Source of the DNA: Candidatus Altarchaeales archaeon ex4484_2
Lineage (GTDB): Archaea > Altiarchaeota > Altiarchaeia > IMC4 > QMZM01
Direction of reading: 5' to 3'
Assembly (NCBI GenBank): GCA_002254565.1
Contig: NJEG01000010.1
Location: 1-48,102 of the forward strand
DNA length: 48,102 nt
Of the stretch, positions 6,545-48,062 are shown piece after piece. A program made the position numbers and the translations under genes. Under the pieces are notes generated by a model. That model made no database searches, had not been told where the DNA came from, and saw only the letters and a program-made list of their open reading frames with translations. Every line of letters starts with the position of its first letter. The first letter of the stretch is position 1.

Positions 6545-7834
6545 TTATTTCGTTTTCTCCCATCTTTTTATTTCCAAGACCCTTGAGAGTGTGGAACCCC
6601 TTTTTATCTCCTCCCTCACCCTGTTTTCCTTCTCGTAAACGTCTAATGCCCTGTTAGCTACCTCAACCGCCCTATTTGCTGGAACAACAACAACGCCATC
6701 AGAGTCCCCTATGATCCAGTCACCTGGTTTAACCGATAAACCCCCGCAAGACACAGGGATGTTGATTTCACCCATACCCTTCGGTTCTCCCGCAGCAGGT
6801 TTCACCTCCCTGGCACACACAGGAAACCCAAGCTCCCTGATCGCCCCTATATCCCTCACAGCCCCGTCAATGACCACCGCAGCAATCTTTTTTTGGACAC
6901 AGCTTTCAGAGGCAAGCTCCCCCCACACAGCCTTGGTAGTGGCTCCGGCATCAACGACAATAACATCACCTTCATCTGCCTCATCTATTGCCTCAACGGG
7001 TTTAGCCCAGTCTCCTGGATAGGTTCTCACCGTAACAGCAGTGCCCATAAACACGGATCCGGAGAATAACCTGATACCCTGCATGTATCCCCCCCTATGC
7101 AAAGCATCACTTATGTTCGCCGTGGAAACCATCCCAAAAATCTTCCCCGGTTCAGTGTATTTCTTGTACAACTCACTTCTAACCCGTTTCTTTCCCCCCA
7201 TCGCCCTCTTTATATCCCGTGTTGCTTTTCTAGCGTCTCCTGCCTTGGTTATGGCGCCGCCCACTATGACAACAGAGGCTCCGTTCTTCACGGCCTCGGC
7301 AGCCGTCTCCGAGTTTATCCCGCCCGCTATAGCCAGAGGCGCCTTTGTTTTACCAGCTATCTTTGAGAGCTCCGCTATGGGATTTATTCCAGACATCTGC
7401 TGGTCTATGCTAACATGCACACAGATGTAATCAACCCCCATAGAATCCAGCTCCAATGCCCGCTCCTCCAAGTCAGGAGCATTCATCAAGTCAGCCATAA
7501 TCTCGCAGCCATAGTTCCTGCCGGCTTCCACAGCCTCCCTTACCGTTGAGTCATCCGTAACACCCAAGACTACCACAACATCAGCTCCCGCCTTCGAGGC
7601 AGCCTCCACCTCAAACCTGCCGGTATCCATGACCTTCATATCGGCTATAATCTTCTTATCAGGGAATCTCTTCCTTAACTCCCTGACTGAATCAAGCCCT
7701 TCACTTTTTATCAGAGGAGTGCCTGCCTCAATCCAGTTAACTCCACCTTCAACAGACTCCTCAGCTGCCTTAACCGCCCTCTTCAGGTTGATGAAATCAA
7801 GTGCAACCTGCAACACAGGAAACTTTGAGGTCAT
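6545..7834 (-). CDS. Bifunctional 3-hexulose-6-phosphate synthase / RraA-like protein
   Basis: Residues 1 to about 210 form a hexulose-phosphate synthase of the OMP-decarboxylase-like barrel family (LQVALDFINL, IEAGTPLIKSEG, IIADMKVMDTG, AIAGGIN). It condenses ribulose 5-phosphate and formaldehyde, or runs in reverse to make pentoses. Residues about 225-410 are an RraA/HMG-aldolase-like domain (GDVIVVDAGATTKAVWGEL, AAVVIDGAVRDI, PGDWIIGDSDGVVVVP). This fusion is known from several archaea lacking a complete oxidative pentose pathway. The role of the RraA part is unclear. The partner 6-phospho-3-hexuloisomerase is not in the window. Confidence 0.92.
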   Translation of the reverse strand: MTSKFPVLQVALDFINLKRAVKAAEESVEGGVNWIEAGTPLIKSEGLDSVRELRKRFPDKKIIADMKVMDTGRFEVEAASKAGADVVVVLGVTDDSTVREAVEAGRNYGCEIMADLMNAPDLEERALELDSMGVDYICVHVSIDQQMSGINPIAELSKIAGKTKAPLAIAGGINSETAAEAVKNGASVVIVGGAITKAGDARKATRDIKRAMGGKKRVRSELYKKYTEPGKIFGMVSTANISDALHRGGYMQGIRLFSGSVFMGTAVTVRTYPGDWAKPVEAIDEADEGDVIVVDAGATTKAVWGELASESCVQKKIAAVVIDGAVRDIGAIRELGFPVCAREVKPAAGEPKGMGEINIPVSCGGLSVKPGDWIIGDSDGVVVVPANRAVEVANRALDVYEKENRVREEIKRGSTLSRVLEIKRWEKTK

Positions 7835-7837
7835 ATC

Positions 7838-7894
7838 TATGATCTATAGAAACAAAACAAAAAAAAGAAAAGAAAAAGAAAAAAGTAGGGGGTA
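7838..7894 (-). terminator. Pyrimidine-rich terminator after acs
   Basis: Immediately past the acs stop the reverse strand reads GGGGTA-TTAAC-TACCCC, a short hairpin overlapping the stop, followed by a long T-rich tract (runs of T broken by single C or G). Archaeal transcription commonly ends on such oligo-T stretches. It separates acs from the hps-rraA gene downstream. Confidence 0.6.
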
Positions 7895-34975: not shown

Positions 34976-35137
34976 ATGATGGAAATCAAGGATTGCTACG
35001 GATGCGGTGGCTGCGTGGCGGTATGCCCGCATGGAGCGTTAACTATAGATGATGTGGTGGAGAGGATGGATGAGAAATGCATTAAATGCCGGATCTGTGA
35101 ACATGTCTGCCCCAACGGCCTAATCAAGATAGAATAA
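34976..35137 (+). CDS. Short dicluster ferredoxin, probable donor to geranylgeranyl reductase
   Basis: This 53-codon gene encodes MMEIKDCYGCGGCVAVCP (Cys at 7, 10, 13, 17) and a second motif CIKCRICEHVCP, giving two [4Fe-4S] sites. The start may be either of two adjacent ATGs (34976 or 34979). A TATA-like ATATATAAA is just upstream. It lies 6 nt before the geranylgeranyl reductase gene. In Methanosarcina acetivorans a neighbouring ferredoxin is required for full reduction of lipids by this reductase, so the same job is inferred here. Confidence 0.9.
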   Translation: MMEIKDCYGCGGCVAVCPHGALTIDDVVERMDEKCIKCRICEHVCPNGLIKIE

Positions 35138-35143
35138 AGGACA

Positions 35144-36310
35144 ATGGATGAATACGACGTAGTTGTTGTCGGCGCCGGACCCGCTGGATCAACAGCCGCA
35201 AGATTCGCAGCAGAAAAAGCAAGAGTGCTGCTCGTAGACAAACACAGAGAGATAGGTTCCCCAAAGAGATGTGGTGAGGGACTCACACTCGACGCCTTCA
35301 GGGACCTGGATATTCCATTGGACAAAAGATTCATAAACAAAAAGATATATGGCTCAGTGGTATACGCCCCCGGTGGCGGCAAAATAGAGATAAGATATGA
35401 TGAACCAGCAGGCTACATAATAGAGAGAAAAATCTTCGATAAATTTCTGGCAGCCGAAGCCTCACGTAAAGGAGTACGGGTTTTAGCCGACGCATACGCC
35501 ACATTAAATACCGTAAACGGACGCATTATGGGAGTTAGGATACGGCACCAGGGAGAGGAAAGAGAGATTAAAGCAAAGGTAGTTATCGCCGCAGACGGTG
35601 TTGAATCCCAGATAGCTAGGCAGGCAGGCATTAATACAGCCTTAAACCCCCGGGATATAGACTCATGCTTCGAGTATGAGATGTCGGATATAAAGATTGA
35701 AGACCCGAACATGATTCATGCTTATCTGGGAAACAAGATAGCTCCTGGGGGGTATATATGGATTTTCCCGAAAGATGATGATAGGGCAAACGTTGGCGTC
35801 GGAGTCTGTGGAGGTGAGAGAGAAACAGCTAAATATTACCTTGACAGATTCATTAAATCAAGACCTGATTTAAGGGGGGGGAGCATACTTGAGGTTAATG
35901 TTGGTTGCATCCCCGTGGGAGCTTCCCTTAAGGAATTAGTCAGGGATAATCTGATGGTGGTCGGCGATGCAGCGAGACAGGTGAATCCAGTTCATGCGGG
36001 AGGAGTGCATAACGCTATGTTAGCCGGGAAACTGGCAGGCACTACTGCCGCAGAGACCATAGACTCCCAAGACCTGGGCATACTCAAGAGATATGAGCTG
36101 GGATGGAACTCATCCAAAGGCAAGCAGCTGGAGAGGATCCTGAGGATCAGGTATTTCATGAGGAAACTCGGGGACGGGGATATGGATTACCTCACCCGGG
36201 TCTGGGACGGCGGCGACCTGATCAGGGTGAGTGAGGGGGATTGGGGTGTTGCATTGAAGAAGATGGCTGAGCATCCCAGGCTCCTGAAGCTGCTTAAAAA
36301 GTTTGTATAA
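35144..36310 (+). CDS. Geranylgeranyl reductase (archaeal lipid saturation)
   Basis: This FAD enzyme reduces the double bonds of geranylgeranyl chains of archaeal ether lipids. Visible are the dinucleotide motif VVVVGAGPAGSTAARFAA (about residues 6-23), the RCGEGL segment, the PxxYxWxFP-like GGYIWIFPKDD (near residue 201), VGDAARQVNPVHAGGVHNAM (second FAD motif) and a helical C-terminus. At 388 residues it is typical. It is coupled to the ferredoxin gene upstream and begins the lipid-associated gene block. Confidence 0.93.
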   Translation: MDEYDVVVVGAGPAGSTAARFAAEKARVLLVDKHREIGSPKRCGEGLTLDAFRDLDIPLDKRFINKKIYGSVVYAPGGGKIEIRYDEPAGYIIERKIFDKFLAAEASRKGVRVLADAYATLNTVNGRIMGVRIRHQGEEREIKAKVVIAADGVESQIARQAGINTALNPRDIDSCFEYEMSDIKIEDPNMIHAYLGNKIAPGGYIWIFPKDDDRANVGVGVCGGERETAKYYLDRFIKSRPDLRGGSILEVNVGCIPVGASLKELVRDNLMVVGDAARQVNPVHAGGVHNAMLAGKLAGTTAAETIDSQDLGILKRYELGWNSSKGKQLERILRIRYFMRKLGDGDMDYLTRVWDGGDLIRVSEGDWGVALKKMAEHPRLLKLLKKFV

Positions 36311-36331
36311 CGATATAAGCAGGGGGTGATA

Positions 36332-36409
36332 ATGAGAGGGGGATACGATGTAATCATCATCGGAGCAGGATTAGCGGTTTTACTTCTATTTATTCCTCAT
36401 ATCATTTAG
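36332..36409 (+). pseudogene. Truncated start of an FAD/NAD-binding oxidoreductase
   Basis: A GGGGGTGAT site and ATG are followed by RGGYDVIIIGAGLA, the beta-alpha Rossmann opening of an FAD-dependent oxidoreductase such as phytoene desaturase. The similarity then stops abruptly and the frame closes after 25 codons. The 3' end overlaps the end of the convergent membrane-protein gene. It appears to be the left-over 5' end of a gene that once followed the geranylgeranyl reductase, cut by a deletion or insertion. Confidence 0.6.
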
Positions 36410-36821
36410 TAATAGTTCCGATTACTCCACCGCATGCACCGAGGATTATCGCTAGGAACATATAGGTCATAAACACAATCGAGAATGCTACAACAATAAT
36501 GGGTTCTCCAAGACCGATAGGTTTAACCCCAACCAACTGCCAGATTGTACCATAAGGCAATTCTATATGAAACCAGAGCAGGGAAAGATTCAGAGCAGCA
36601 GATACTGCAAGAGATATTACTCCAGTAAACGCTCCGGCGAATGTGCCATCGACTAACCCTATTTTTCCACTTTTCTTTAGAAGATATGCAGATAATGCCC
36701 CTCCAGCAATGATCCATACACAACAAATATTAAGATACTGCAGGTAGGGGAGTCCAGACAGGATACCTACCAGGATACCCATAACACCCGCAGATAGTAT
36801 CACCTTCCATGCCGCCACCAT
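36402..36821 (-). CDS. Four-helix membrane protein, unknown
   Basis: This 139-residue, glycine-rich integral membrane protein has helices near residues 6-25, 28-47, 58-80 and 108-136. No motif of a named family is recognised. I start at the ATG at 36821, preceded by AGGGTGAT; an in-frame GTG three codons upstream overlaps that site. It lies on the opposite strand inside the lipid block, divergent from a 54-residue membrane protein. Confidence 0.65.
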   Translation of the reverse strand: MVAAWKVILSAGVMGILVGILSGLPYLQYLNICCVWIIAGGALSAYLLKKSGKIGLVDGTFAGAFTGVISLAVSAALNLSLLWFHIELPYGTIWQLVGVKPIGLGEPIIVVAFSIVFMTYMFLAIILGACGGVIGTITK

Positions 36822-36912
36822 GAATATCACCCTATCAAAGATATATCTCTATTTTAGATATATATCTGATTTCTAATATATTAGCATTCCAAGAAAAATA
36901 AGGGGCGACAGA
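36822..36912. promoter_or_regulatory. Divergent AT-rich promoter with GATATAT repeats
   Basis: The gap contains repeated AGATATAT elements (about 36837-36869) arranged as AGATATATCT and TAGATATATATCT, each nearly self-complementary, plus TATA-like boxes facing both the four-helix protein and the small membrane protein. Possible operator; the regulator is unknown. Confidence 0.4.
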
Positions 36913-37077
36913 ATGGATAGATATCTGGAAATCTTGTTGGGTTTGATCTTAACCGGATTGGGCATATATGGAACATGGTTCTTCAGGGACCAAGTAGTGA
37001 CCGTGATCGAGGGATGCATTGGAATACTTTTAGTATTGACGGGTATAGCCATCATTGGGTGGGCATCATTGGAGTAA
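36913..37077 (+). CDS. Small two-helix membrane protein (54 residues), unknown
   Basis: The frame encodes MDRYLEILLGLILTGLGIYG, a short charged loop (FFRDQ), and a second helix (IEGCIGILLVLTGIAIIGWAS). The two-helix hairpin composition and a GGGGCG purine run before the ATG support a real gene. It starts the forward-strand series leading into the UbiA and Tes-like genes, 22 nt upstream of UbiA. No family recognised. Confidence 0.55.
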   Translation: MDRYLEILLGLILTGLGIYGTWFFRDQVVTVIEGCIGILLVLTGIAIIGWASLE

Positions 37078-37099
37078 TAGTTGATAGGTTGGAATAACA

Positions 37100-37954
37100 A
37101 TGTTGGAGAAATATTTAAAACTAATTAGGGTAAAGAACGGCATACTATTCATCGTAGCTATTATACTGGGGGGGTATGTATACGAAATCGAACTGATGAA
37201 GATTTCGATAATCTCATTACTATATTTTTGTGCTTTATCTCAAGTAAATGTTTTCAACGACGTCTTTGATATCCAAACTGACAGAATAAACAGGTCAAAT
37301 AGACCTCTATCCTCAGGGAAAGTTTCATTAATAAATGCAAAAAGATTGGGTATGCTCCTCACCATCGGGTTTGTTTTATTCAGCTCGTTCTTGGGGATGG
37401 AGTATATGATACTAGCAATATTGGTAACAATACTGAACCGCCTATATACCTCGATAATGAAACCAAGGGTATTTATGGGGAATATATATGTTTCACTCAT
37501 GTTAGCATCACTCTTTGTTCTATATGCAATCCTCTCTGTTGAAAAACCAATCGTCGGATATTATCTTTGCGTTGGGACCTTTCTGTTGATGATTGCAAGA
37601 GAGATATTAAAAGATGTTGAGGATATTGATGGCGATAAGATGGTGGGGATGAAGACATTGCCAATTGTTTTCGGAAAAGATAATGCTATTTTTGTTTCCA
37701 TCATACCCCTAGTAAATTTGGGGATGGTGACAGCATTTTTCACGTATCTTGCATATCCAGGTGGCGTTAATACTACATCCCTATCCCAGTTTATCTTATT
37801 TGGTCTGTTTTGTTTACTCTGCGTTTCCTTTACATATCTCAGATATTACACGGAGAGAAGACAGAGGCATATATCAATGCTCTCACTCTCCATGAAGATT
37901 CTCGCTATACCCCTGATGGTCATTACACCACTATTCAAGATTTTTAGTTTTTGA
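37100..37954 (+). CDS. UbiA-family prenyltransferase (DGGGP-synthase-like)
   Basis: UbiA enzymes are integral membrane prenyltransferases. The first Asp-rich motif NVFNDVFDIQTDRINRSNRP (near residues 51-70) and the second DVEDIDGDKMVGMKTLP (near residues 173-189) are present, with about eight hydrophobic helices in 284 residues. The DRINRxxRPLSSG pattern is like digeranylgeranylglyceryl-phosphate synthase, which adds the second prenyl chain to archaeal ether lipids, though other acceptors are possible. Its position next to geranylgeranyl reductase and a Tes-like enzyme supports a lipid role. Confidence 0.85.
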   Translation: MLEKYLKLIRVKNGILFIVAIILGGYVYEIELMKISIISLLYFCALSQVNVFNDVFDIQTDRINRSNRPLSSGKVSLINAKRLGMLLTIGFVLFSSFLGMEYMILAILVTILNRLYTSIMKPRVFMGNIYVSLMLASLFVLYAILSVEKPIVGYYLCVGTFLLMIAREILKDVEDIDGDKMVGMKTLPIVFGKDNAIFVSIIPLVNLGMVTAFFTYLAYPGGVNTTSLSQFILFGLFCLLCVSFTYLRYYTERRQRHISMLSLSMKILAIPLMVITPLFKIFSF

Positions 37955-37966
37955 GGTTAGACAGAG

Positions 37967-39463
37967 ATGACAAAAATAGTCCATGAAACAAAAAGCATCT
38001 GTCCGGAATGCCTGAAGGTTATTGATGCAGAATTACTTGAAGAAGATGGACAGATAAAGATTAGGAAAACATGTGAAGAGCACGGCGAATTTGAGGAGAT
38101 TTACTGGAGCAACATAGAGCACTATAAATGGGTAATGAAGTTTCAGGACGATGGTGAAGGAATAAGCAATCCAGGAACTAAAAAGACGGAAAAGGGATGT
38201 CCATATGATTGTGGTTTATGTGAGGAACATAAAAGTCACACAGTTCTGGGTCTCGTGGATGTGACCAATCGCTGTAATCTGCGATGCCCGGTATGCTTCG
38301 CAAATGCTGCTTCTGTCGGCTATGTCTACGAACCGACGAAAGAGCAGATAAAAGAGATGCTACAGAATTTAAGAAATAATAAACCGGTTCCCTGTTACTC
38401 ATTTCAGTTCGCCGGTGGTGAGCCAACAATGAGGGATGATCTTCCGGAGTTGGTGAAAATAGGCAAGGAACTCGGTTTTCTATTCATCATGGTGGATACA
38501 AATGGAATTAGAATTGCTGAGGATGGAAAATATCTAAAGGCATTAAAAGATGCCGGCTTAGACTCCTTTTATCTGCAGTTTGATGGTTTGGATGACGAAA
38601 TTTATAAAAAATTACGCGGAAGAAAACTCCTGGAAACAAAGATCGAGGCGATAGAGAACTGCCGCGAGATCGGTCTAAAAAATGTTGTATTGGTTGTTAC
38701 ATTGGTTAAGGGGGTAAATGATGATCAGCTGGGGGATATAATAAAATTTGCCGTGGAGAATTCTGACATAATAACGTCTGTGAATGTTCAACCGATTTCA
38801 TTCAGCGGTAGAGTAAGTGATGTGGAGAGGAAAAAGGGCAGGATAACAACCTATGACTTCATCGACCTCTTGGAAAAACAAACCAACGGAAAGATAAAGG
38901 CAAAATACTTCTATCCAATACCCGCCACGGTTCCGATTTCCAGATTTATTGAGGCGGAGACCCGCGAACCAAGCACTAAACTTAGCACCCACCCCTGTTG
39001 TGGTGTCGCTACTTATATAATTACTGATGACGATGGCAGCTATACTCCGATAAATGAACTCGTGGATGTTGATAAATTTCTGAGCATACTTCAGAAGGGT
39101 TACTCCAAAACTACAAAGCTTGAGATCACTGCCCACATACTTAGAGATGCAATAAAGAATATTCATGATTCAGGGCGTAGAAAATTGATACAACAGTTCC
39201 TTAGGGAGGGAACATTCGATGCTGCAGCCGCTTTCCATAAAAATGCAATAATGATTGGATGCATGCACTTCCAGGATCCATGGAATTTTGATTTAGAAAG
39301 GGTGCAGAGGTGTGTGATTCATTATTCATTGCCCGATGGCAGATTGCTCCCATTCTGTCCCTACAATAACCTGCATAGAGGGGCATTGGAGAATAAATTC
39401 TCGGTTCCGTTGAGGGAATGGGGGAGCAATCATGGGGGTCTGCCCATCTCGGCATATTGTTAG
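37967..39463 (+). CDS. tes: Radical SAM protein of the tetraether synthase (Tes / MJ0619-like) family
   Basis: Tes joins two archaeol-type lipid tails carbon to carbon to give membrane-spanning tetraethers. The family's domain order is visible: an N-terminal zinc/Fe-S-like region with C12, C15 and C36; a KGCPYDCGLC motif (C78, C82, C85); the radical SAM CNLRCPVC (C103, C107, C110); a GGEPT SAM-binding segment; then C-terminal cysteines in HPCCGVATY, IGCMHFQDPWNFDLERVQRC and LPFCPYNNL. At 498 residues it fits the family. It follows UbiA by 12 nt. The reaction product is inferred from family membership. Confidence 0.88.
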   Translation: MTKIVHETKSICPECLKVIDAELLEEDGQIKIRKTCEEHGEFEEIYWSNIEHYKWVMKFQDDGEGISNPGTKKTEKGCPYDCGLCEEHKSHTVLGLVDVTNRCNLRCPVCFANAASVGYVYEPTKEQIKEMLQNLRNNKPVPCYSFQFAGGEPTMRDDLPELVKIGKELGFLFIMVDTNGIRIAEDGKYLKALKDAGLDSFYLQFDGLDDEIYKKLRGRKLLETKIEAIENCREIGLKNVVLVVTLVKGVNDDQLGDIIKFAVENSDIITSVNVQPISFSGRVSDVERKKGRITTYDFIDLLEKQTNGKIKAKYFYPIPATVPISRFIEAETREPSTKLSTHPCCGVATYIITDDDGSYTPINELVDVDKFLSILQKGYSKTTKLEITAHILRDAIKNIHDSGRRKLIQQFLREGTFDAAAAFHKNAIMIGCMHFQDPWNFDLERVQRCVIHYSLPDGRLLPFCPYNNLHRGALENKFSVPLREWGSNHGGLPISAYC

Positions 39464-39479
39464 ATGCAATAGAGAGATA

Positions 39480-40514
39480 ATGAGCACAATAACAAAACGC
39501 AAGGCCGGATCCTTCAGTATCTTCCTAGGTTTTGCCATGGTCTTTTACATCATCCGGCAGGCTGGATTTGGTAACATACACCAGATATTAACACACCTCA
39601 CTCCAGGCTATATCCTTATGGCTTTGGTTATAGATCAACTCATAATTGGATTGGGCGCAGTTAGATGGATGAACTTCATTAACTCTGCCAATGTCAAGGT
39701 TAAATTTAGAGACATCTATCTGATTCACTTGATTGGTTTGGCTGTGAATAATGTCACCCCCGTCGCCCGGTTGGGTGGAGAGCCAGTTAAATTATACCTC
39801 CTGAACAAATATACAAAAATCAGAAAATCCATCGGATCTGCAACCATAATTGCAAGTGGCTTTTTTGATCTGGGGAGCTTCCTTCTCCTCAACATTATCG
39901 CAATCTTGCTTCTTTATTTTAATTTACAACTGCCTTTAGACTTTGCTTATCCCCTGCTCTTCTTTGTCGTCGTTTTCTCTACTTTATTCCTGTCATTAGT
40001 ACATATCTCAATCAAAGAGAATGAATCATTGTTCATCACTCACTGGCTCATATCCAGACTTAAAAAAATCAAGCTGCTGCATGAAGGATTGGAAAAATGG
40101 AGGGAGAGGATAGATGAGGGAGTTAAGCGATACGTCACTACCGTAAGGATGAGTCTTGGCTCTACATTACTCCTAAATTTATTTATTACTGTCACAGTTA
40201 GGGTTTTAGAGGTGTTACGGGTTTATATGATTGTTCTAGCAGTTAATGAATACATAGACATTATGTGGATCATAGTAGCACTAGCATTTTTAATTGCGGC
40301 GGGTTTAATACCCTCACCACCAGGAGGTTTCGGTGTGGTGGAGCCAACAATGACCGCAGTATTTCTATTGGGGGGATTAGCATTGAGTTCAGCCATAACT
40401 ATTGTTTTGATCGATAGATTACTTACTATAGGGGTCACTTCACTCATGGGCTTTGGTTGTGTTCATTTTCTGGGTGTGCAATCAGAGATAACAAAATATC
40501 AGGTTGGTCAATAG
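39480..40514 (+). CDS. Flippase-like integral membrane protein (UPF0104/AglD-C-terminal type)
   Basis: This 344-residue protein has about eight membrane helices and the lysylphosphatidylglycerol-synthase-TM-like pattern GYILMALVIDQLIIGLGAVRW, NNVTPVARLGGEPVKLYLL and IPSPPGGFGVVEPTMTAVFLLGG. Members are thought to flip or help transfer lipid-linked molecules. I start at the ATG at 39480, after GAGAGAT; the upstream in-frame start lies inside tes. It is 16 nt after tes. A lipid-linked glycan or modified lipid may be its cargo, given the GT2 gene downstream. Confidence 0.82.
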   Translation: MSTITKRKAGSFSIFLGFAMVFYIIRQAGFGNIHQILTHLTPGYILMALVIDQLIIGLGAVRWMNFINSANVKVKFRDIYLIHLIGLAVNNVTPVARLGGEPVKLYLLNKYTKIRKSIGSATIIASGFFDLGSFLLLNIIAILLLYFNLQLPLDFAYPLLFFVVVFSTLFLSLVHISIKENESLFITHWLISRLKKIKLLHEGLEKWRERIDEGVKRYVTTVRMSLGSTLLLNLFITVTVRVLEVLRVYMIVLAVNEYIDIMWIIVALAFLIAAGLIPSPPGGFGVVEPTMTAVFLLGGLALSSAITIVLIDRLLTIGVTSLMGFGCVHFLGVQSEITKYQVGQ

Positions 40515-40522
40515 GTGTTAAA

Positions 40523-41844
40523 ATGAGGGATTATGACGTCATTGTGATAGGCGCGGGAATCAGCGGTTTATTATCTGCTTTAACACTGTCAAAGGAGGGG
40601 AAAAGAGTCTTGATTCTAGAAAAAGAGGGTTATGTTGGTGCTGTCTGCAGATCCTATGAGGTTAACGGTTACAGGGTAGATACCGGGCCACACGCAATAA
40701 CGAGACTTGAAAGTGGACCACTACGGGAGTTAATGAAAAAATACTTTGATGTTGTTCCAAAGTTTATTCCCTTTGGAACATATTATGTGCGAGTTGACAA
40801 CAGAGTGAAGGCATTTCTATGGAACATCAAGGATTGGTTAATGTTCGATCTAATCCCTATGAAGGATAGATTACTGTTAATGAAATCGCTATTTGATACC
40901 CCGTATATGCTGAATACGGGTAAGGATCTATCGACTGTTTCGATAAACGATATACTTCCATGTGATGTCTCAATTACAACCAGGAGGTTTTTAGACTGGC
41001 TCTCTTACTTTATGGTCGGCACGTCTATGGAAAATGCCCCAATATCAAGATTCATAGATAATAAAGATCATAGACCAAGTTCAATACACTATGTGGGAAG
41101 ATTATACAATCCACTTATCACAGAGGGTGCTAGAGACCAAGGATACCCTAAAGGCGGGCTTCAATCCATAGTTGATTCCATCATGAATTCCTTTCCCAAG
41201 AACATGATTGAAATCAAAACAAATGAGGAGGTATTAAAGATCCAATGCAACGAGAGAATATATGGGGTAGTTACCAGAGAGGACAGTTATGATTGCAATA
41301 CAATAATTTACTCTGGATTTGCCTCGAATCTGCCTAATCTGATTGATAATCTACCGAGAGAATACGTTAAAAATCTAAAATCCATCAGGAAGGTTAATTC
41401 CCTAACCATCTGGCTCGGTTTAACTAAAAGGATTTTTAAGAATCACGGCTCTGAGATGTGGATCAACTCAGAGCCCTATGCCTGGGTTGTTCCAACATCC
41501 AACTACGATCCAAGATTGGTTCCTAAGGGGAAAACAGTTGGTGGGTTTCGCGTTCATATTACCTGAAAAATACGATTTGGGGGGAAATGAAGAAAAAGGC
41601 TTTGATTGCAATCTTTGACACAGTCTCCGAGATTGAAAAATACATCGATATGATCCACTATCATGAGCTGATTCCGGAAAAGGCATCATGGAGTATTAAC
41701 CCTGGCTTCGGGGATGTGAAAACTCCGATAAAAAATCTATACTGTGTTGGAACGGATGCAGAGAATAGAAGTGCCGGTGTGATCAGGGCAGCATATTCTG
41801 TTCTAAGGTGTCTGGAAATTATGAAATCCGATAGATTTTTATAA
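40523..41844 (+). pseudogene. CrtI/phytoene-desaturase-like oxidoreductase broken by two frameshifts
   Basis: The ATG at 40523 opens with the FAD motif YDVIVIGAGISGLLSALTLSK, and the frame runs to about 41535. One base later the homology continues in the next frame (QLVGFAFILPEKYDLGGN), and about 60 nt on it shifts again to EKALIAIFDTVSEIEKYIDM through NLYCVGTDAENRSAGVIRAAYSVLR, the C-terminal FAD motif, ending at 41844. Both shifts are in purine runs, so sequencing error cannot be excluded. Repaired length is about 440 residues. CrtI-like enzymes desaturate or saturate isoprenoid chains. Confidence 0.8.
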
Positions 41845-41846
41845 AA

Positions 41847-41966
41847 ATGCAAGTTTCGATTCAAACAAAAAATCTCGTAAAGAGGTTTGGGGACTTTACT
41901 ACGGTAGACCACATTAATCTAAAGATAAATTTTGCTGATACTTTTGATTATTTTACTGTTATTTAA
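41847..41966 (+). pseudogene. Truncated ABC transporter ATPase (N-terminal 39 residues only)
   Basis: MQVSIQTKNLVKRFGDFTT, followed by VDHINLKI, is the standard beginning of a DrrA/CcmA-type ABC ATPase just before the Walker A motif. The frame then loses similarity and stops at 41966. The rest of the ATPase and its partner permease are missing. The PadR gene that follows is the kind usually found with such transporters, so it may be an orphan of a deleted operon. Confidence 0.75.
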
Positions 41967-42008
41967 TAAACGAAACAGGATTTTAAGATTAATTAAGAGG
42001 TGATCAAA

Positions 42009-42344
42009 TTGAGAAAAAAGAAAACAGATAAAGGTGATGAATTAAAGATATCGAAGAAGTGGATTAAAAGTTTTACGGAGCTTTATGTTCTATTATTTTT
42101 TAAGGCGAATCCGGATTCATCAGGGTATGATATCTGCAAATTTGTTGAGTTGGAGTATGGATTCAAGATTTCCTACTCCAAGATATATCCTTTGCTGAGT
42201 GAACTTGAAAAGAAGGAGGTTATATCTGTAAAAGAAGACGCCAGCAAATATCCTCCAAAGAATATCTATAGATTAACATCTGAGGGAGAGAGAAGGATAG
42301 GGGAATACAAAGAAGTGTTCATGAAATTCCTGGAGGGGTTTTAG
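42009..42344 (+). CDS. PadR-family transcriptional regulator
   Basis: The winged helix reads FTELYVLLFFKANPDSSGYDICKFVELEYGFKISYSKIYPLLSELEKKEVISV, with the PadR-type YPLLSELE motif, and RLTSEGERR near the end. PadR proteins are dimeric repressors often linked to membrane or efflux genes. The likely start is a TTG at 42009 (111 residues), 6 nt after GAGGTG; a GTG at 42000 overlaps that site. It lies one base upstream of the GT2 gene and may control the lipid block. Confidence 0.82.
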   Translation: MRKKKTDKGDELKISKKWIKSFTELYVLLFFKANPDSSGYDICKFVELEYGFKISYSKIYPLLSELEKKEVISVKEDASKYPPKNIYRLTSEGERRIGEYKEVFMKFLEGF

Positions 42345-42345
42345 A

Positions 42346-43305
42346 ATGGATATCTCAGTGATCATCCCGACACTAAATGAGGGAAAAAACATTGAGGACT
42401 GCCTTAAAGCGATTCGTTCACAGGATACCCTGGCAGAATATGAGATTATTGTCTGTGATGCGAGAAGCGGGGATAATACAGTAGCTATAGCTGAAAAGTA
42501 CGCAGACGAAATTGTTTTATCTGACACGAGAAGCATAGGCATCCAGAGAAATCTTGGCGCAGAACATGCGAAAGGAAATTATCTCGTCTTTGTAGATGCC
42601 GATACAATCCTCCCAAAAAATTATCTGGGGAAGGTCATGGAGAAATTCAGAGATGACCCTGAATTAATCGGTTTCAGCACACAATTCAGGTTCCTGAAGA
42701 GAGAGGAAAAATTAGTTTTCGCTGAAAGGATCACAAATTCATATCTTGAGTTCAGGAGCAGGATGGGATACGCGATTTTATTGGGTTTCAGCACATGCGT
42801 GAGAAAAAAAGTCTTTAAGTCCCTCAAGGGGTTCAGGGATGTTCCCTTGGAGGATGGAGAATTCGGTTTTCGCATGAGGAAAACAGGGAAGACATCATTT
42901 TTCACGGATTTCTATGTTATCACATCCTCAAGGAGGCTGGAGGAGATGGGTTTACTGGGGACGTTGAGATACTATCTCGAAATGGATCTTACAACCAGGA
43001 ATGCGAGAATAGGGAAACTATTAATCTATAATGAATATGTTCCCTGCAGGGTAGACAACAAAATGCTGCAAAAGGAGTTCGCAAGAATCTTTAGCCCGAA
43101 CCGGCCTGCGATGGATATATCCATCAGGGATTACATCAAAAGCAAGGGCGGTGAGTTGTTGGGGTTGTATAAGGCGACACATGAGCAATTTACAGACAGA
43201 ATCACGGAGCTTTCGGAATCGATAGCTGAACTAAAGCTGATTCCCAAGGTTGATAGGATAGATGTTGACAGAGCTATTAAGATGATTAAAGAGAGGGGGA
43301 AGTAG
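42346..43305 (+). CDS. Family 2 glycosyltransferase
   Basis: The GT-A fold is clear: ISVIIPTLNEGKNIEDCLKAIRSQ at the start, CDARSGDNT, the DxD-like VFVDADTILP (near residue 85) and LEDGEFGFRMRKTGK as the acceptor-side acidic motif. After about residue 225 there is a C-terminal extension that is mostly helical and charged, with no membrane helix. GT2 enzymes use nucleotide or polyprenyl sugars. Being two bases after PadR and in line with the lipid genes, it could glycosylate a lipid head group; that is inference. Confidence 0.85.
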   Translation: MDISVIIPTLNEGKNIEDCLKAIRSQDTLAEYEIIVCDARSGDNTVAIAEKYADEIVLSDTRSIGIQRNLGAEHAKGNYLVFVDADTILPKNYLGKVMEKFRDDPELIGFSTQFRFLKREEKLVFAERITNSYLEFRSRMGYAILLGFSTCVRKKVFKSLKGFRDVPLEDGEFGFRMRKTGKTSFFTDFYVITSSRRLEEMGLLGTLRYYLEMDLTTRNARIGKLLIYNEYVPCRVDNKMLQKEFARIFSPNRPAMDISIRDYIKSKGGELLGLYKATHEQFTDRITELSESIAELKLIPKVDRIDVDRAIKMIKERGK

Positions 43306-43316
43306 GGTCTCCTGCA

Positions 43317-44411
43317 TTATTCCTTGATAAAATCCTTGAGTCTTTTTATTGCATGAATCCTTTCTCTCCTGTCGAGTCTGGCCTGCTCCAATGCATCCCT
43401 CAGGGTCTCTATGGATGTGTCATAGACTCCTCTGTTTACTGGATACGGGAACCCGTCTTTCCCTCCATGAGTGAACGAGTACTTCACAGGATCTTTCCAG
43501 GAAGGCTCTGAGCCATAAACCAGATCGGAAATCAATGCAAGAGCCCTGATCTTCTTCGGACCCATCCCCCTCAGAGAAACAAGCTCCTCATAGTTCTCCG
43601 GCTGCAGCTCATATGCTTTCTGAAGCACCCTCAACCCATCCCGACCCAAGTCCATGTCCAAGACCGGATGATGAGAGGGCATAGTGAACTGGCTTAGTTT
43701 CCTCTGCCCCCCCTTGCCCATGAAGTATTTCCCAAGATGCTGTGGACCATCATTCACCAGATCCACCGAGATACTCCGCGCCTCATCGCTTTCCTTTGAT
43801 GCCATGTCCAATACCCCCTCTTTCATGTGGTCGCAGCAGATTCCAGTATGCGGCTCCTCAAAGAAGCACCGTGTTTCAGCAGAAAGCCAGTGATATCTAC
43901 GCGCGTATCTATCACCCATCCCCTGCTGCACCACCGCCCAATCACCCTCCTCGGTCAGGAAAAAGACGTGATGGTATAATTGATAAGAGTCCTGGATGCA
44001 TGAGTTATCTACCTTCGCCGTTATCTTGCTACTATAGACCATATCGTCTACTTCATCAGTCTTCAGGTTAAAGAGGTCGCCCGCCTCCACTATCTCTTCA
44101 GGGGTCTTCCTTGAAGTCGCGCCTTTGCCTCCCGCAACATAGATGCCTGTTTCCTGTGGATCTAAAGCAACCTTAAGAGCCCCGCATGTGGTCGTCGTAG
44201 TCCCACTTGAGTGCCAGTCGAAACCTAATACGCAGCTAAAGGCCTGGAACCAGCAGGGGTTGCTGATTCTCCTCAGGAACTCCTCGCTACCGTATTCCTC
44301 AACCACAGCATCTGTTACTGCTTTAGCAAGCCGAACCATCCTCGCAAAAAGCCATCTTGGAGCATGGCCCCCATGCAACGGTAGATTAGCTACTCCAGTC
44401 TTATGCATCAT
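43317..44411 (-). CDS. DUF763-family protein with a helix-hairpin-helix
   Basis: Function unknown; the family is conserved in archaea and some thermophilic bacteria. Characteristic are GVANLPLHGGHAPRWLFARMVRLA at the start, NPCWFQAFSCVLGFDWHSSGTTTT, GDRYARRYHWLS and the MPSHHPV motif. Near residue 280 the segment LVSLRGMGPKKIRALALI is a helix-hairpin-helix, suggesting DNA or RNA binding. At 364 residues it is full length. It is convergent with the GT2 gene. Confidence 0.9.
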   Translation of the reverse strand: MMHKTGVANLPLHGGHAPRWLFARMVRLAKAVTDAVVEEYGSEEFLRRISNPCWFQAFSCVLGFDWHSSGTTTTTCGALKVALDPQETGIYVAGGKGATSRKTPEEIVEAGDLFNLKTDEVDDMVYSSKITAKVDNSCIQDSYQLYHHVFFLTEEGDWAVVQQGMGDRYARRYHWLSAETRCFFEEPHTGICCDHMKEGVLDMASKESDEARSISVDLVNDGPQHLGKYFMGKGGQRKLSQFTMPSHHPVLDMDLGRDGLRVLQKAYELQPENYEELVSLRGMGPKKIRALALISDLVYGSEPSWKDPVKYSFTHGGKDGFPYPVNRGVYDTSIETLRDALEQARLDRRERIHAIKRLKDFIKE

Positions 44412-46674: not shown

Positions 46675-46775
46675 TTTGGAAAACACCGGTGAAGTTGTTT
46701 TTTATTGATTTTATACTAATATTTGGATACCATCCAATATAAAGTGTTTAATAATTTAAATTAACTGAATAAAAA
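46675..46775. promoter_or_regulatory. AT-rich divergent region between sepF and orc1/cdc6
   Basis: This 101-bp gap includes the inverted repeat TTGGA-N5-TCCAA (46723-46737) and AT-rich runs with a TATA-like TAATTTAAATTA at about 46751-46762, about 15-25 nt before the orc1 start. Origins in archaea often lie next to orc1/cdc6, but I see no clear pair of ORB elements, so this is only a candidate promoter/operator. Confidence 0.4.
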
Positions 46776-48062
46776 ATGATGGACGATATATTCGAGGAGG
46801 AGATAAACAGGAGGCGAATATTCAAGGACACCCTCATTTTATCACCGCATTACGTGCCTGAGGAGTTACCTCACAGGGAGATGGAAATCAGAGACATCAC
46901 ACGGAGTGTTGCACCAGCCTTGAGGAACGAAAAACCAAGCAACACCTTCATCTACGGGAAGACGGGAACAGGAAAAACCTGTGTTGTAAGATATGTGATA
47001 AGAAAGCTTGAGGAGTTCGCAAACAATCCAGAGAAGAACCCCCACGGCATTATCGTAAAAACAGTCTACATGAACTGCAAGGTCAGGGACACCAAATACA
47101 AGGTTCTGTTGAAAATCCTGGAAGACAAGAAACTCAACCACCCGGATCTGAAGAACACACCACTATCAGACAGACCACAAAAAAGCCTGAAGGGTATGGA
47201 TCCGGGGGATTTATACGATAGACTCTATAACGTGGTTAACAGCAACGAAATAAACCTTATGCTGGTGTTGGACGAGATAGACATGGTCAAGAAGGGCTTC
47301 GATGATTTGATGTACATACTGACCAGAATCAACGATGAACTGGAATACGGGAACGTCTCCATACTGGGATTAACTAATGATATGAAAACCCTGAGAAGGA
47401 TGGACCCCAGAAGCAGGAGCACTCTATGCCAGGAGGAGAGGGTGTTTAAGCCATACAACGCCGTGCAACTTAAAACAATACTAAAACAAAGAATAGATAA
47501 TGGATTCCAGGAGGGTGTAGTGGATACGGGTGTTGTTTCCCTGATTGCTGCATTCGCCGCACAGGATGGGGATGCGAGATACGCCCTTAAACTCCTGAGG
47601 AAGGCTGGTGAGATAACCAGGGATGTGGGAGATGAAAAGATATTAAAAAAACACGTGGATGAAGCAAAGGATGCGGTGGAAAACGATATCATAGCCGAAG
47701 CCATAAGCACCCTGCCCGAGCACCAGCAGCTGGTCATATACTCTATCGCCGCACTCACATCCAGGGGAGGGATGTACAAAAGATTGTCCGGGCTGGGTGG
47801 AGGCGACCTCTTCACCGGGGAAGTCTACGAAACCTACGAGAAATACTGTAAGCTGCTGAACCGGAAGGCGAGAACCATCAGACAGTTCAGCGAGTACCTT
47901 AATGAGCTGGAGATGCTGGGTCTTATAACAATGAGGATGTCAGGTAAAGGCACCAGAGGCACTACCAGATTCATCAGGCTAGGATATTCCCCTGATGAGA
48001 TTAAATCCATCCTCCGGAAAAGCCTTGGACTAGAGGACCTAGAGATGAAGACCCCATCCTAG
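46776..48062 (+). CDS. cdc6: Orc1/Cdc6 family replication initiator
   Basis: This AAA+ protein binds origins and loads MCM. Walker A is YGKTGTGKTCVVRYVI (residues 60-75) and Walker B is VLDEIDMVKKG (near residue 165). Sensor 1 is ILGLTNDMKTLRRMDPRSRS and sensor 2 is DARYALKLLRKAGE. A C-terminal winged helix (about 340-415) should contact DNA. At 428 residues it is full length. The start may be either of two consecutive ATGs. It is the last gene; 48063-48102 shows nothing. Confidence 0.95.
   Translation: MMDDIFEEEINRRRIFKDTLILSPHYVPEELPHREMEIRDITRSVAPALRNEKPSNTFIYGKTGTGKTCVVRYVIRKLEEFANNPEKNPHGIIVKTVYMNCKVRDTKYKVLLKILEDKKLNHPDLKNTPLSDRPQKSLKGMDPGDLYDRLYNVVNSNEINLMLVLDEIDMVKKGFDDLMYILTRINDELEYGNVSILGLTNDMKTLRRMDPRSRSTLCQEERVFKPYNAVQLKTILKQRIDNGFQEGVVDTGVVSLIAAFAAQDGDARYALKLLRKAGEITRDVGDEKILKKHVDEAKDAVENDIIAEAISTLPEHQQLVIYSIAALTSRGGMYKRLSGLGGGDLFTGEVYETYEKYCKLLNRKARTIRQFSEYLNELEMLGLITMRMSGKGTRGTTRFIRLGYSPDEIKSILRKSLGLEDLEMKTPS

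What the first reader, a model, noticed from the sequence alone, without database searches (positions are those of the whole stretch)
34976..43305. Compact archaeal membrane-lipid module: ferredoxin, GGR, UbiA, Tes-type radical SAM, flippase-like, CrtI-like, PadR, GT2
Enzymes for saturating isoprenoid chains (GGR with its ferredoxin), attaching them (UbiA), fusing two tails into tetraethers (Tes family) and possibly flipping (UPF0104-like) and glycosylating (GT2) lipids lie within about 8 kb, mostly on one strand with short gaps from UbiA to GT2. GGR with ferredoxin is known from Methanosarcina, and Tes from Methanocaldococcus and Sulfolobus. The association with a dedicated flippase-like protein, a CrtI-like oxidoreductase and two small unknown membrane proteins could define a lipid-remodelling operon under PadR control.
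Basis: partly seen in the sequence, partly recalled or inferred. Interest (0 to 1): 0.72.

Follow-up and report, generated by a model that had tools for sequence, protein, structure and literature searches.

The report
Recently exchanged archaeal tetraether-lipid gene block
An uncultured archaeon carries a real tetraether-lipid synthase gene packed together with spare copies of other lipid genes, and most of this gene block was swapped recently between two related species as one piece; every enzyme is of a known kind, so the news is the packing and the exchange, not a new chemistry.

Summary
The radical SAM protein (37967-39463) is a true tetraether synthase (NCBIfam NF045702, 635 bits against a cut-off of 450; 50% identical to crystallised M. 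jannaschii Tes, with every ligand I could map conserved). It lies in a tight same-strand run: 54-aa membrane protein, UbiA, Tes, flippase-like protein, CrtI-like protein. Fd-GGR lies upstream and a PadR-GT2 pair downstream.

Three corrections. (1) CrtI is frameshifted, so it is probably dead. (2) UbiA, GGR, the flippase-like protein, CrtI and GT2 are all second copies; only Tes is single. UbiA2 and Flip2 have no close relative outside the genus in the genomes searched. (3) The unit is not Fd-to-GT2. From 36393 to about 43500 two congeneric genomes are 92-100% identical (dS 0.005-0.14), while Fd-GGR and the other flank differ by dS 0.4-0.8: a recently exchanged block that excludes Fd-GGR. At family level, Fd-GGR2, GT2 and Tes do share a looser neighbourhood, with Tes decaying or lost in two genomes.

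Best reading: a tetraether-lipid neighbourhood with a divergent second DGGGP-synthase-like UbiA in the tes operon. This is a new variant of a known kind. PadR control of the whole cluster is unsupported.

The parts
34976..35137 (+). Ferredoxin, 53 aa, two [4Fe-4S] motifs, directly upstream of GGR2
   Evidence: translation; PF00037 45.4 bits; Fd next to GGR2 also in G001, G003, G004, G011
35144..36310 (+). GGR2, second geranylgeranyl reductase of the genome, outside the exchanged block
   Evidence: TIGR02032 255 bits (cut-off 158.8); TaGGR 3oz2 236 bits; another GGR at G000:C48 46% identical; dS 0.40-0.42 to G001
36332..36409 (+). Remnant: first 25 codons of a FAD/NAD-binding protein (MRGGYDVIIIGAG...), then stop; the identity step to G001 falls at about 36393
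   Evidence: Sequence read; same remnant in G001; no Pfam match because too short
36402..36830 (-). DUF5518-like 4-TM membrane protein, about 142 aa
   Evidence: PF17647 23.0 bits (below cut-off 27); hydropathy; only in this genus among fetched loci
36913..37077 (+). 54-aa hydrophobic small membrane protein, first ORF of the tes run
   Evidence: intact in G000 and G001; weak YgaP-like_TM 18.5 bits, below cut-off
37100..37954 (+). UbiA2, DGGGP-synthase-like prenyltransferase, divergent second copy
   Evidence: PF01040 104 bits; MjDGGGPS 6m31 100 bits with NDxFDxxxDRIN and REIxKDxEDxxGDK conserved; other UbiA at G000:C31 30% identical
37967..39463 (+). Tes, tetraether lipid synthase (radical SAM), only copy in the genome assembly
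   Evidence: NF045702 635 bits (cut-off 450); 7tol 519 bits; all mapped metal ligands and Q/S/R loop conserved
39480..40514 (+). Flip2, LPG_synthase_TM/UPF0104-like membrane protein, divergent second copy
   Evidence: PF03706 146 bits; TIGR00374 152 bits (cut-off 43.2); other copy at G000:C48 22% identical
40523..41844 (+). CrtI2, CrtI-like FAD oxidoreductase, broken by +1 shifts near 41543 and 41575
   Evidence: alignment to intact G014 orthologue (74%); first lesion shared with G001
41847..41966 (+). Remnant of an ABC-transporter ATPase start (39 codons, stop)
   Evidence: Sequence read; also in G001; no Pfam match
42000..42344 (+). PadR-family regulator
   Evidence: PF03551 45.2 bits (cut-off 27); PadR directly before GT2 also in G008
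42346..43305 (+). GT2 family glycosyltransferase, 1 nt after PadR
   Evidence: PF00535 93.7 bits; orthologues 57-72% in G008, G010, G003, G005; next to the Tes site in G010 and G003
36393..43500 (.). Recently exchanged block: 92-100% identical to G001 while flanks are mostly 67-91% identical; right edge lies inside the DUF763 gene, approximate
   Evidence: sliding identity; dS block 0.005-0.14 against flanks 0.40-0.79

Best explanation
This is a tetraether-lipid gene neighbourhood. Its core is an operon-like run (54-aa membrane protein, UbiA2, Tes, Flip2, former CrtI2), lying between a resident Fd-GGR2 pair and a PadR-GT2 pair. Proposed working: ferredoxin passes electrons to GGR2, which saturates geranylgeranyl chains. 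Tes then joins the terminal carbons of two saturated phytanyl chains into a biphytanyl chain. UbiA2, with the catalytic motifs of DGGGP synthase, adds a prenyl chain to a glycerol-phosphate-type acceptor, as a second enzyme beside the ordinary one. Flip2 and GT2 would move and glycosylate a lipid or lipid carrier. Shown: gene identities, intactness, Tes ligands, tight spacing, extra copies elsewhere, and recent exchange of the UbiA2-to-GT2 block between two congeneric genomes. Inferred from characterised relatives: Tes and GGR chemistry. Guessed: substrates of UbiA2, Flip2 and GT2, and that they serve the same lipid as Tes. CrtI2 is probably no longer functional.
For: Tes passes its curated equivalog model and matches crystallised MjTes over its length, 50% identity. 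The rubredoxin C12/C15/C36/H39, N-cluster C78/C82/C85, radical SAM C103/C107/C110 and C-cluster cysteines plus M433 are conserved, against the ligands of PMC9433317. That paper shows Tes acts on saturated lipid, so GGR next to Tes makes metabolic sense. Spacing is 22, 12, 16 and 8 nt from the small ORF to CrtI2. The whole order recurs in G001, and block dS is 0.005-0.14 against 0.40-0.79 in flanks. Other genera of the family keep Fd-GGR2 about 5 kb from Tes (G004, L025) or from a Tes remnant (G003, L173), and GT2 near Tes (G010, L023).
Against: UbiA2, Flip2 and DUF5518 were not found near Tes outside the genus, and CrtI homologues are rare in Bathyarchaeia although Tes is common there. In the same family Tes also sits between an AI-2E permease and ProS, with no lipid gene adjacent (G005, L024). 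GGR2 carries an 8-bp deletion in G001 and CrtI2 is frameshifted, so not all parts are under strong selection. The genome holds ordinary copies of UbiA and GGR that could supply Tes alone.
Confidence: 0.62

Rival explanations
1. Mosaic neighbourhood without functional coupling: a decaying, recombination-prone stretch in which a genuine tes gene happens to lie beside mobile or leftover lipid genes, each with its own role.
For: Three gene remnants lie within 8 kb. CrtI2 is frameshifted, and GGR2 is broken in G001. A 156-bp repeat with about 20 full or partial copies in G001 sits exactly at the left junction there. Tes neighbours vary among genera, and Tes is a remnant or missing at the site in G003 and G011.
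Against: UbiA2, Tes and Flip2 are intact, spaced 12-16 nt apart, and were exchanged together; Flip2 dN/dS is 0.12 and Tes 0.24, though from few changes. Fd-GGR2 with Tes recurs in another genus.
Confidence: 0.25
2. UbiA2, Flip2, CrtI2 and GT2 belong to a polyprenol or dolichol sugar-carrier pathway (synthesis, saturation, flipping and charging of a glycan carrier), and Tes is the odd gene in the run.
For: The other CrtI-family copy directly follows a GT4 sugar-phosphate transferase gene in 10 of 12 genomes of the family. The other Flip copy is divergently paired with a GT2 gene (G000:C48). GT2 shows weak similarity to dolichol-phosphate mannose synthase (5mlz).
Against: UbiA2 carries the DGGGP-synthase motif set, not expected for a carrier pathway; Tes lies in the middle of the run.
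Confidence: 0.2
3. The sharp identity step to G001 is an assembly chimera from mixed strains, not a genetic exchange.
For: G001 is a fragmented MAG (260 contigs); the title of the matching contig gives coverage 4.9, and the contig breaks inside the block.
Against: Both edges lie inside contigs that also carry diverged flanks (C249 and C52). The block is not identical to G000 but a graded mosaic of 92-100%, and the order is the same in both.
Confidence: 0.12

Closest known systems
Tetraether synthase Tes / GDGT-MAS (M. jannaschii MJ0619, PDB 7tol; S. acidocaldarius Tes; PMC9433317, PMC8941075)
   Same: Full-length match, 50% identity, all mapped ligands and the Q/S/R loop conserved
   Different: Gene sits in an operon-like run with a second UbiA and a flippase-like gene; closest relatives are in its own family, then Bathyarchaeia
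GGR-ferredoxin pair of Methanosarcina acetivorans and other Euryarchaeota (reviewed in PMC9385802, PMC10821996)
   Same: Ferredoxin gene adjacent to GGR; GGR has the RCGEG and PxxYxWxFP motifs and matches TaGGR
   Different: Ferredoxin is upstream rather than downstream; this is the second GGR of the genome, the first also having a ferredoxin gene
DGGGP synthase (UbiA superfamily; M. jannaschii 6m31)
   Same: Both aspartate-rich motifs and flanking residues conserved in UbiA2
   Different: UbiA2 is equally distant (about 30-36%) from all archaeal DGGGP synthases sampled, while the genome's other UbiA groups with its phylum
LPG_synthase_TM / UPF0104 flippase-like family (PF03706, TIGR00374)
   Same: Passes both curated cut-offs
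   Different: No close relative outside the genus (best about 31%); substrate unknown
Altiarchaeota tetraether work (PMC13003381), as a possible biological setting
   Same: That paper reports tes of TACK affinity in the Alti-2 clade and extended tetraethers in the phylum; the Tes here has Bathyarchaeia as nearest outsiders
   Different: The phylum of this window could not be named with the tools, so the link is only a lead

Membership tests
Tes (NF045702) | Score above curated equivalog cut-off | tested here: met
   635.2 bits against 450
Tes (NF045702) | Radical SAM CX3CX2C, rubredoxin CxxC...CxxH, N-terminal and C-terminal [4Fe-4S] ligands | tested here: met
   C103/107/110; C12/15/36 and H39; C78/82/85; C345, C432, M433, C449, C464 aligned to 7tol
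Tes (NF045702) | Places with confirmed Tes enzymes in a phylogeny | tested here: inconclusive
   Tree programs were closed; pairwise scores place it with full-length Tes of its family and Bathyarchaeia
Tes (NF045702) | Forms biphytanyl chains from saturated archaeal lipids | not testable with these tools
   Needs biochemistry
Geranylgeranyl reductase | TIGR02032 cut-off and active-site motifs RCGEG, PxxYxWxFP | tested here: met
   255.5 bits against 158.8; motifs seen in the alignment
DGGGP synthase | NDxxD and second aspartate-rich motif | tested here: met
   NDVFDIQTDRIN and REILKDVEDIDGDK align to 6m31
DGGGP synthase | Groups with the phylum's DGGGP synthases or passes a curated equivalog model | tested here: not met
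   About 30-36% to all; best model NF009523 154.5 bits against cut-off 269
LPG_synthase_TM flippase-like | PF03706 and TIGR00374 cut-offs | tested here: met
   145.9 against 33.4 and 152 against 43.2
LPG_synthase_TM flippase-like | Flips a lipid | not testable with these tools
   Needs assay
CrtI-like oxidoreductase | Intact reading frame over the family length | tested here: not met
   Two +1 shifts relative to G014
PadR-controlled lipid operon | PadR linked to the lipid genes across genomes | tested here: inconclusive
   PadR precedes GT2 in G008 and follows CrtI2 in G014; not seen with UbiA or Tes outside the genus
PadR-controlled lipid operon | PadR operator upstream of the lipid genes | not tested
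   No operator search was made

The most novel reading that the evidence does not exclude
UbiA2 is a second, specialised DGGGP-synthase-type enzyme that makes a different diether (another chain length or head acceptor) as a dedicated Tes substrate, so that the exchanged block lets a species gain a distinct tetraether class in one step; if the organism belongs to Altiarchaeota this could bear on the unexplained extended tetraethers of that phylum.
Probability: 0.13. Interest if true: 0.7.

Novelty: new variant of a known kind. Interest (0 to 1): 0.42.

Why it matters
The passages read in the papers found here describe no tes operon. A tes gene in an operon-like run with a second UbiA and a flippase-like protein, exchanged as a block between species, shows a route by which membrane-spanning lipid capacity could spread, and it gives two uncharacterised proteins testable as tetraether-pathway partners. 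Decay and loss of tes in sister genera suggests that the trait is in flux in this lineage, which matters for reading GDGTs as markers.

Tried and rejected
Wide searches for UbiA2 and Flip2 relatives failed: no match at E <= 1e-30 for UbiA2 in 398 genomes of the phylum holding the Bathyarchaeota genome (the tool warns that an empty answer lacks a positive control), and at best about 31% for Flip2 in 152 genomes of another phylum. CrtI as a general Tes partner was rejected: CrtI homologues occur in 5 of 257 Bathyarchaeia genomes and Tes in 216; adjacency was seen only in G041. Viral origin: no relative of UbiA2, Flip2 or Tes in viral contigs. RNA families: none in the window or the G001 loci. 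Naming the phylum failed: the only close named record is 'archaeon isolate GMC4', and a paper search gave nothing. The idea that the FAD remnant at 36332 is the old CrtI2 start was considered; it is too short to decide. Structure prediction of the membrane proteins was not run, because their sequence neighbours are too few for a useful alignment. Erratum: my third notebook entry says the GT4-CrtI pair is in 11 of 12 genomes; the count is 10 of 12.
Full report
What is there. Searches give ferredoxin 34976-35137, GGR 35144-36310, a DUF5518-like membrane protein on the minus strand at 36402-36830, UbiA 37100-37954, Tes 37967-39463, a PF03706 flippase-like protein (best start 39480, because the longer ORF overlaps Tes) to 40514, a CrtI-like protein from 40523, PadR 42000-42344 and GT2 42346-43305. 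The second small membrane protein is a 54-aa ORF at 36913-37077, intact also in G001. From that ORF to CrtI the gaps are 22, 12, 16 and 8 nt, all on one strand; PadR and GT2 are 1 nt apart. UbiA to GT2 is therefore two tight groups separated by a remnant.

Corrections. CrtI2 is not intact: compared with its 74% identical orthologue in G014 it has a +1 insertion near 41543, shared with G001, and a second +1 near 41575 that G001 lacks. G001 has an earlier -1 that restores its frame after about 35 altered codons. The lesions lie in short base runs, so sequencing error cannot be excluded, but one is shared by two assemblies. Three remnants lie among the genes: an FtsX permease fragment before the ferredoxin (PF02687), a 25-codon FAD-protein start after GGR, and a 39-codon ABC-ATPase-like start before PadR.

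Tes. NCBIfam NF045702 gives 635 bits against a cut-off of 450. The M. jannaschii enzyme (7tol) aligns over residues 7-489 with 50% identity. PMC9433317 names the ligands; allowing for the 20-residue offset of the crystal chain, the rubredoxin site, N-cluster cysteines, radical SAM cysteines and the labile methionine are conserved, as are Q268, S271 and R275. It is the only Tes in the genome assembly. Its nearest relatives are in its own family (about 58-68%, 97% in G001), then Bathyarchaeia (52-54%), then others. No tree could be made.

Second copies. The same genome has another UbiA (C31, 30% identical), another PF03706 protein (C48, 22%), another CrtI (C6, 52%), another GGR with ferredoxin (C48, 46%) and another GT2 (C48, 37%). 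The other UbiA groups with the UbiA proteins of its phylum at about 43-74%, whereas UbiA2 is about equally far (30-36%) from every archaeal UbiA sampled; Flip2 behaves alike. UbiA2 nevertheless keeps both catalytic aspartate motifs of DGGGP synthase. So ordinary lipid synthesis does not depend on this cluster, and UbiA2 and Flip2 look like late arrivals or fast-diverging copies.

Exchange. G001 (same genus) carries the same order on two contigs that meet inside CrtI. Identity is mostly 82-91% in the outer flanks and 78-90% over Fd-GGR, rises to 92-100% from 36393 to about 43500, then falls to 67-82% within the DUF763 gene. Synonymous divergence is 0.40-0.42 in GGR2 and 0.44-0.79 right of the block, but 0.14 in DUF5518, 0.061 in UbiA2, 0.048 in Tes, 0.020 in Flip2, 0.031 in PadR and 0.005 in GT2. 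A common history cannot give both values, so the block was exchanged recently between these lineages or came to both from a third. The right edge inside a shared gene suggests homologous recombination; at the left edge G001 has a 156-bp repeat with about 20 full or partial matches in its genome, whose inverted-repeat core is absent from the window.

Family-level neighbourhood. In G004 the order is FtsX, cation exchanger, Fd, GGR2, small gene, ABC1 kinase (minus), MFS, AI-2E permease, Tes, ProS; in G003 it is the same with GT2 in place of MFS, and Tes reduced to a 62-aa remnant; in G011 AI-2E and ProS are adjacent with no Tes; in G010 GT2, MFS, AI-2E, Tes; in G005 FtsX genes, AI-2E, Tes, ProS; in G009 FtsX genes, Tes, then a CDP-alcohol phosphatidyltransferase. 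Thus Fd-GGR2, GT2 and Tes share a broad ancestral neighbourhood with transporters between them, and Tes is being lost in places. G014, of another family, has GGR2, CrtI2 and a broken PadR in a row, which suggests that UbiA2-Tes-Flip2 came to lie between GGR2 and CrtI2 in this genus. This step is inference.

How it likely works. From PMC9433317 Tes joins saturated chains, so GGR acts before Tes. Ferredoxin adjacent to GGR is a known arrangement (PMC9385802, PMC10821996). UbiA2 most likely prenylates a glycerol-phosphate-type acceptor; its product is unknown. Flip2 and GT2 are assigned by family only. PadR most likely controls its own pair with GT2; nothing ties it to UbiA2-Tes-Flip2.

Verdict. 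Real, mostly as described, with a genuine Tes. Every enzyme type is known; the arrangement and the exchange are the new points. The phylum could not be named; Bathyarchaeia as nearest outsiders for Tes is compatible with what PMC13003381 reports for Alti-2 Altiarchaeota, but that is a lead only.

Noticed in passing
L021:6150-6305 (G001:C249): 156-bp repeat with an inverted-repeat end (CTCCACCCTTTAGGGTGGAG), 7 copies of 89-100% identity (six full length) and more partial ones in G001, few in G000: a MITE-like element, sitting exactly at the left edge of the exchanged block.
   Followed up: partly
G000:C6:2364-4680 (L161) and L046-L055: The ordinary CrtI-like gene directly follows a GT4 sugar-phosphate transferase gene in 10 of 12 genomes of the family; a CrtI-like enzyme may act on the polyprenol sugar carrier.
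   Followed up: partly
L173:15225-15410 and L165:3943-3981: Tes is a 62-aa remnant between AI-2E permease and ProS genes in G003 and absent at the same site in G011: loss of tes within the family.
   Followed up: yes
L043:150-3185 (Bathyarchaeota CALGBN010000126.1): Tes directly followed by a CrtI-like gene (about 12 nt between open frames), the only such adjacency seen among Bathyarchaeia.
   Followed up: partly
L022:5422-6015 (G009): A CDP-alcohol phosphatidyltransferase gene lies directly beside Tes in one genus, another lipid-head-group gene linked to tes.
   Followed up: no
window 46773-48059: Cdc6/Orc1 gene near the window end; a replication origin may be close.
   Followed up: no
window 6548-7843: Fusion of an OMPdecase/HUMPS-type (hexulose-phosphate synthase-like) domain with an RraA-like domain, next to an acetyl-CoA synthetase-like gene.
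   Followed up: no
G000:C48:60313-61952 (L164): Divergent pair of a GT2 and a PF03706 flippase-like gene, recurring in several genomes of the family.
   Followed up: no
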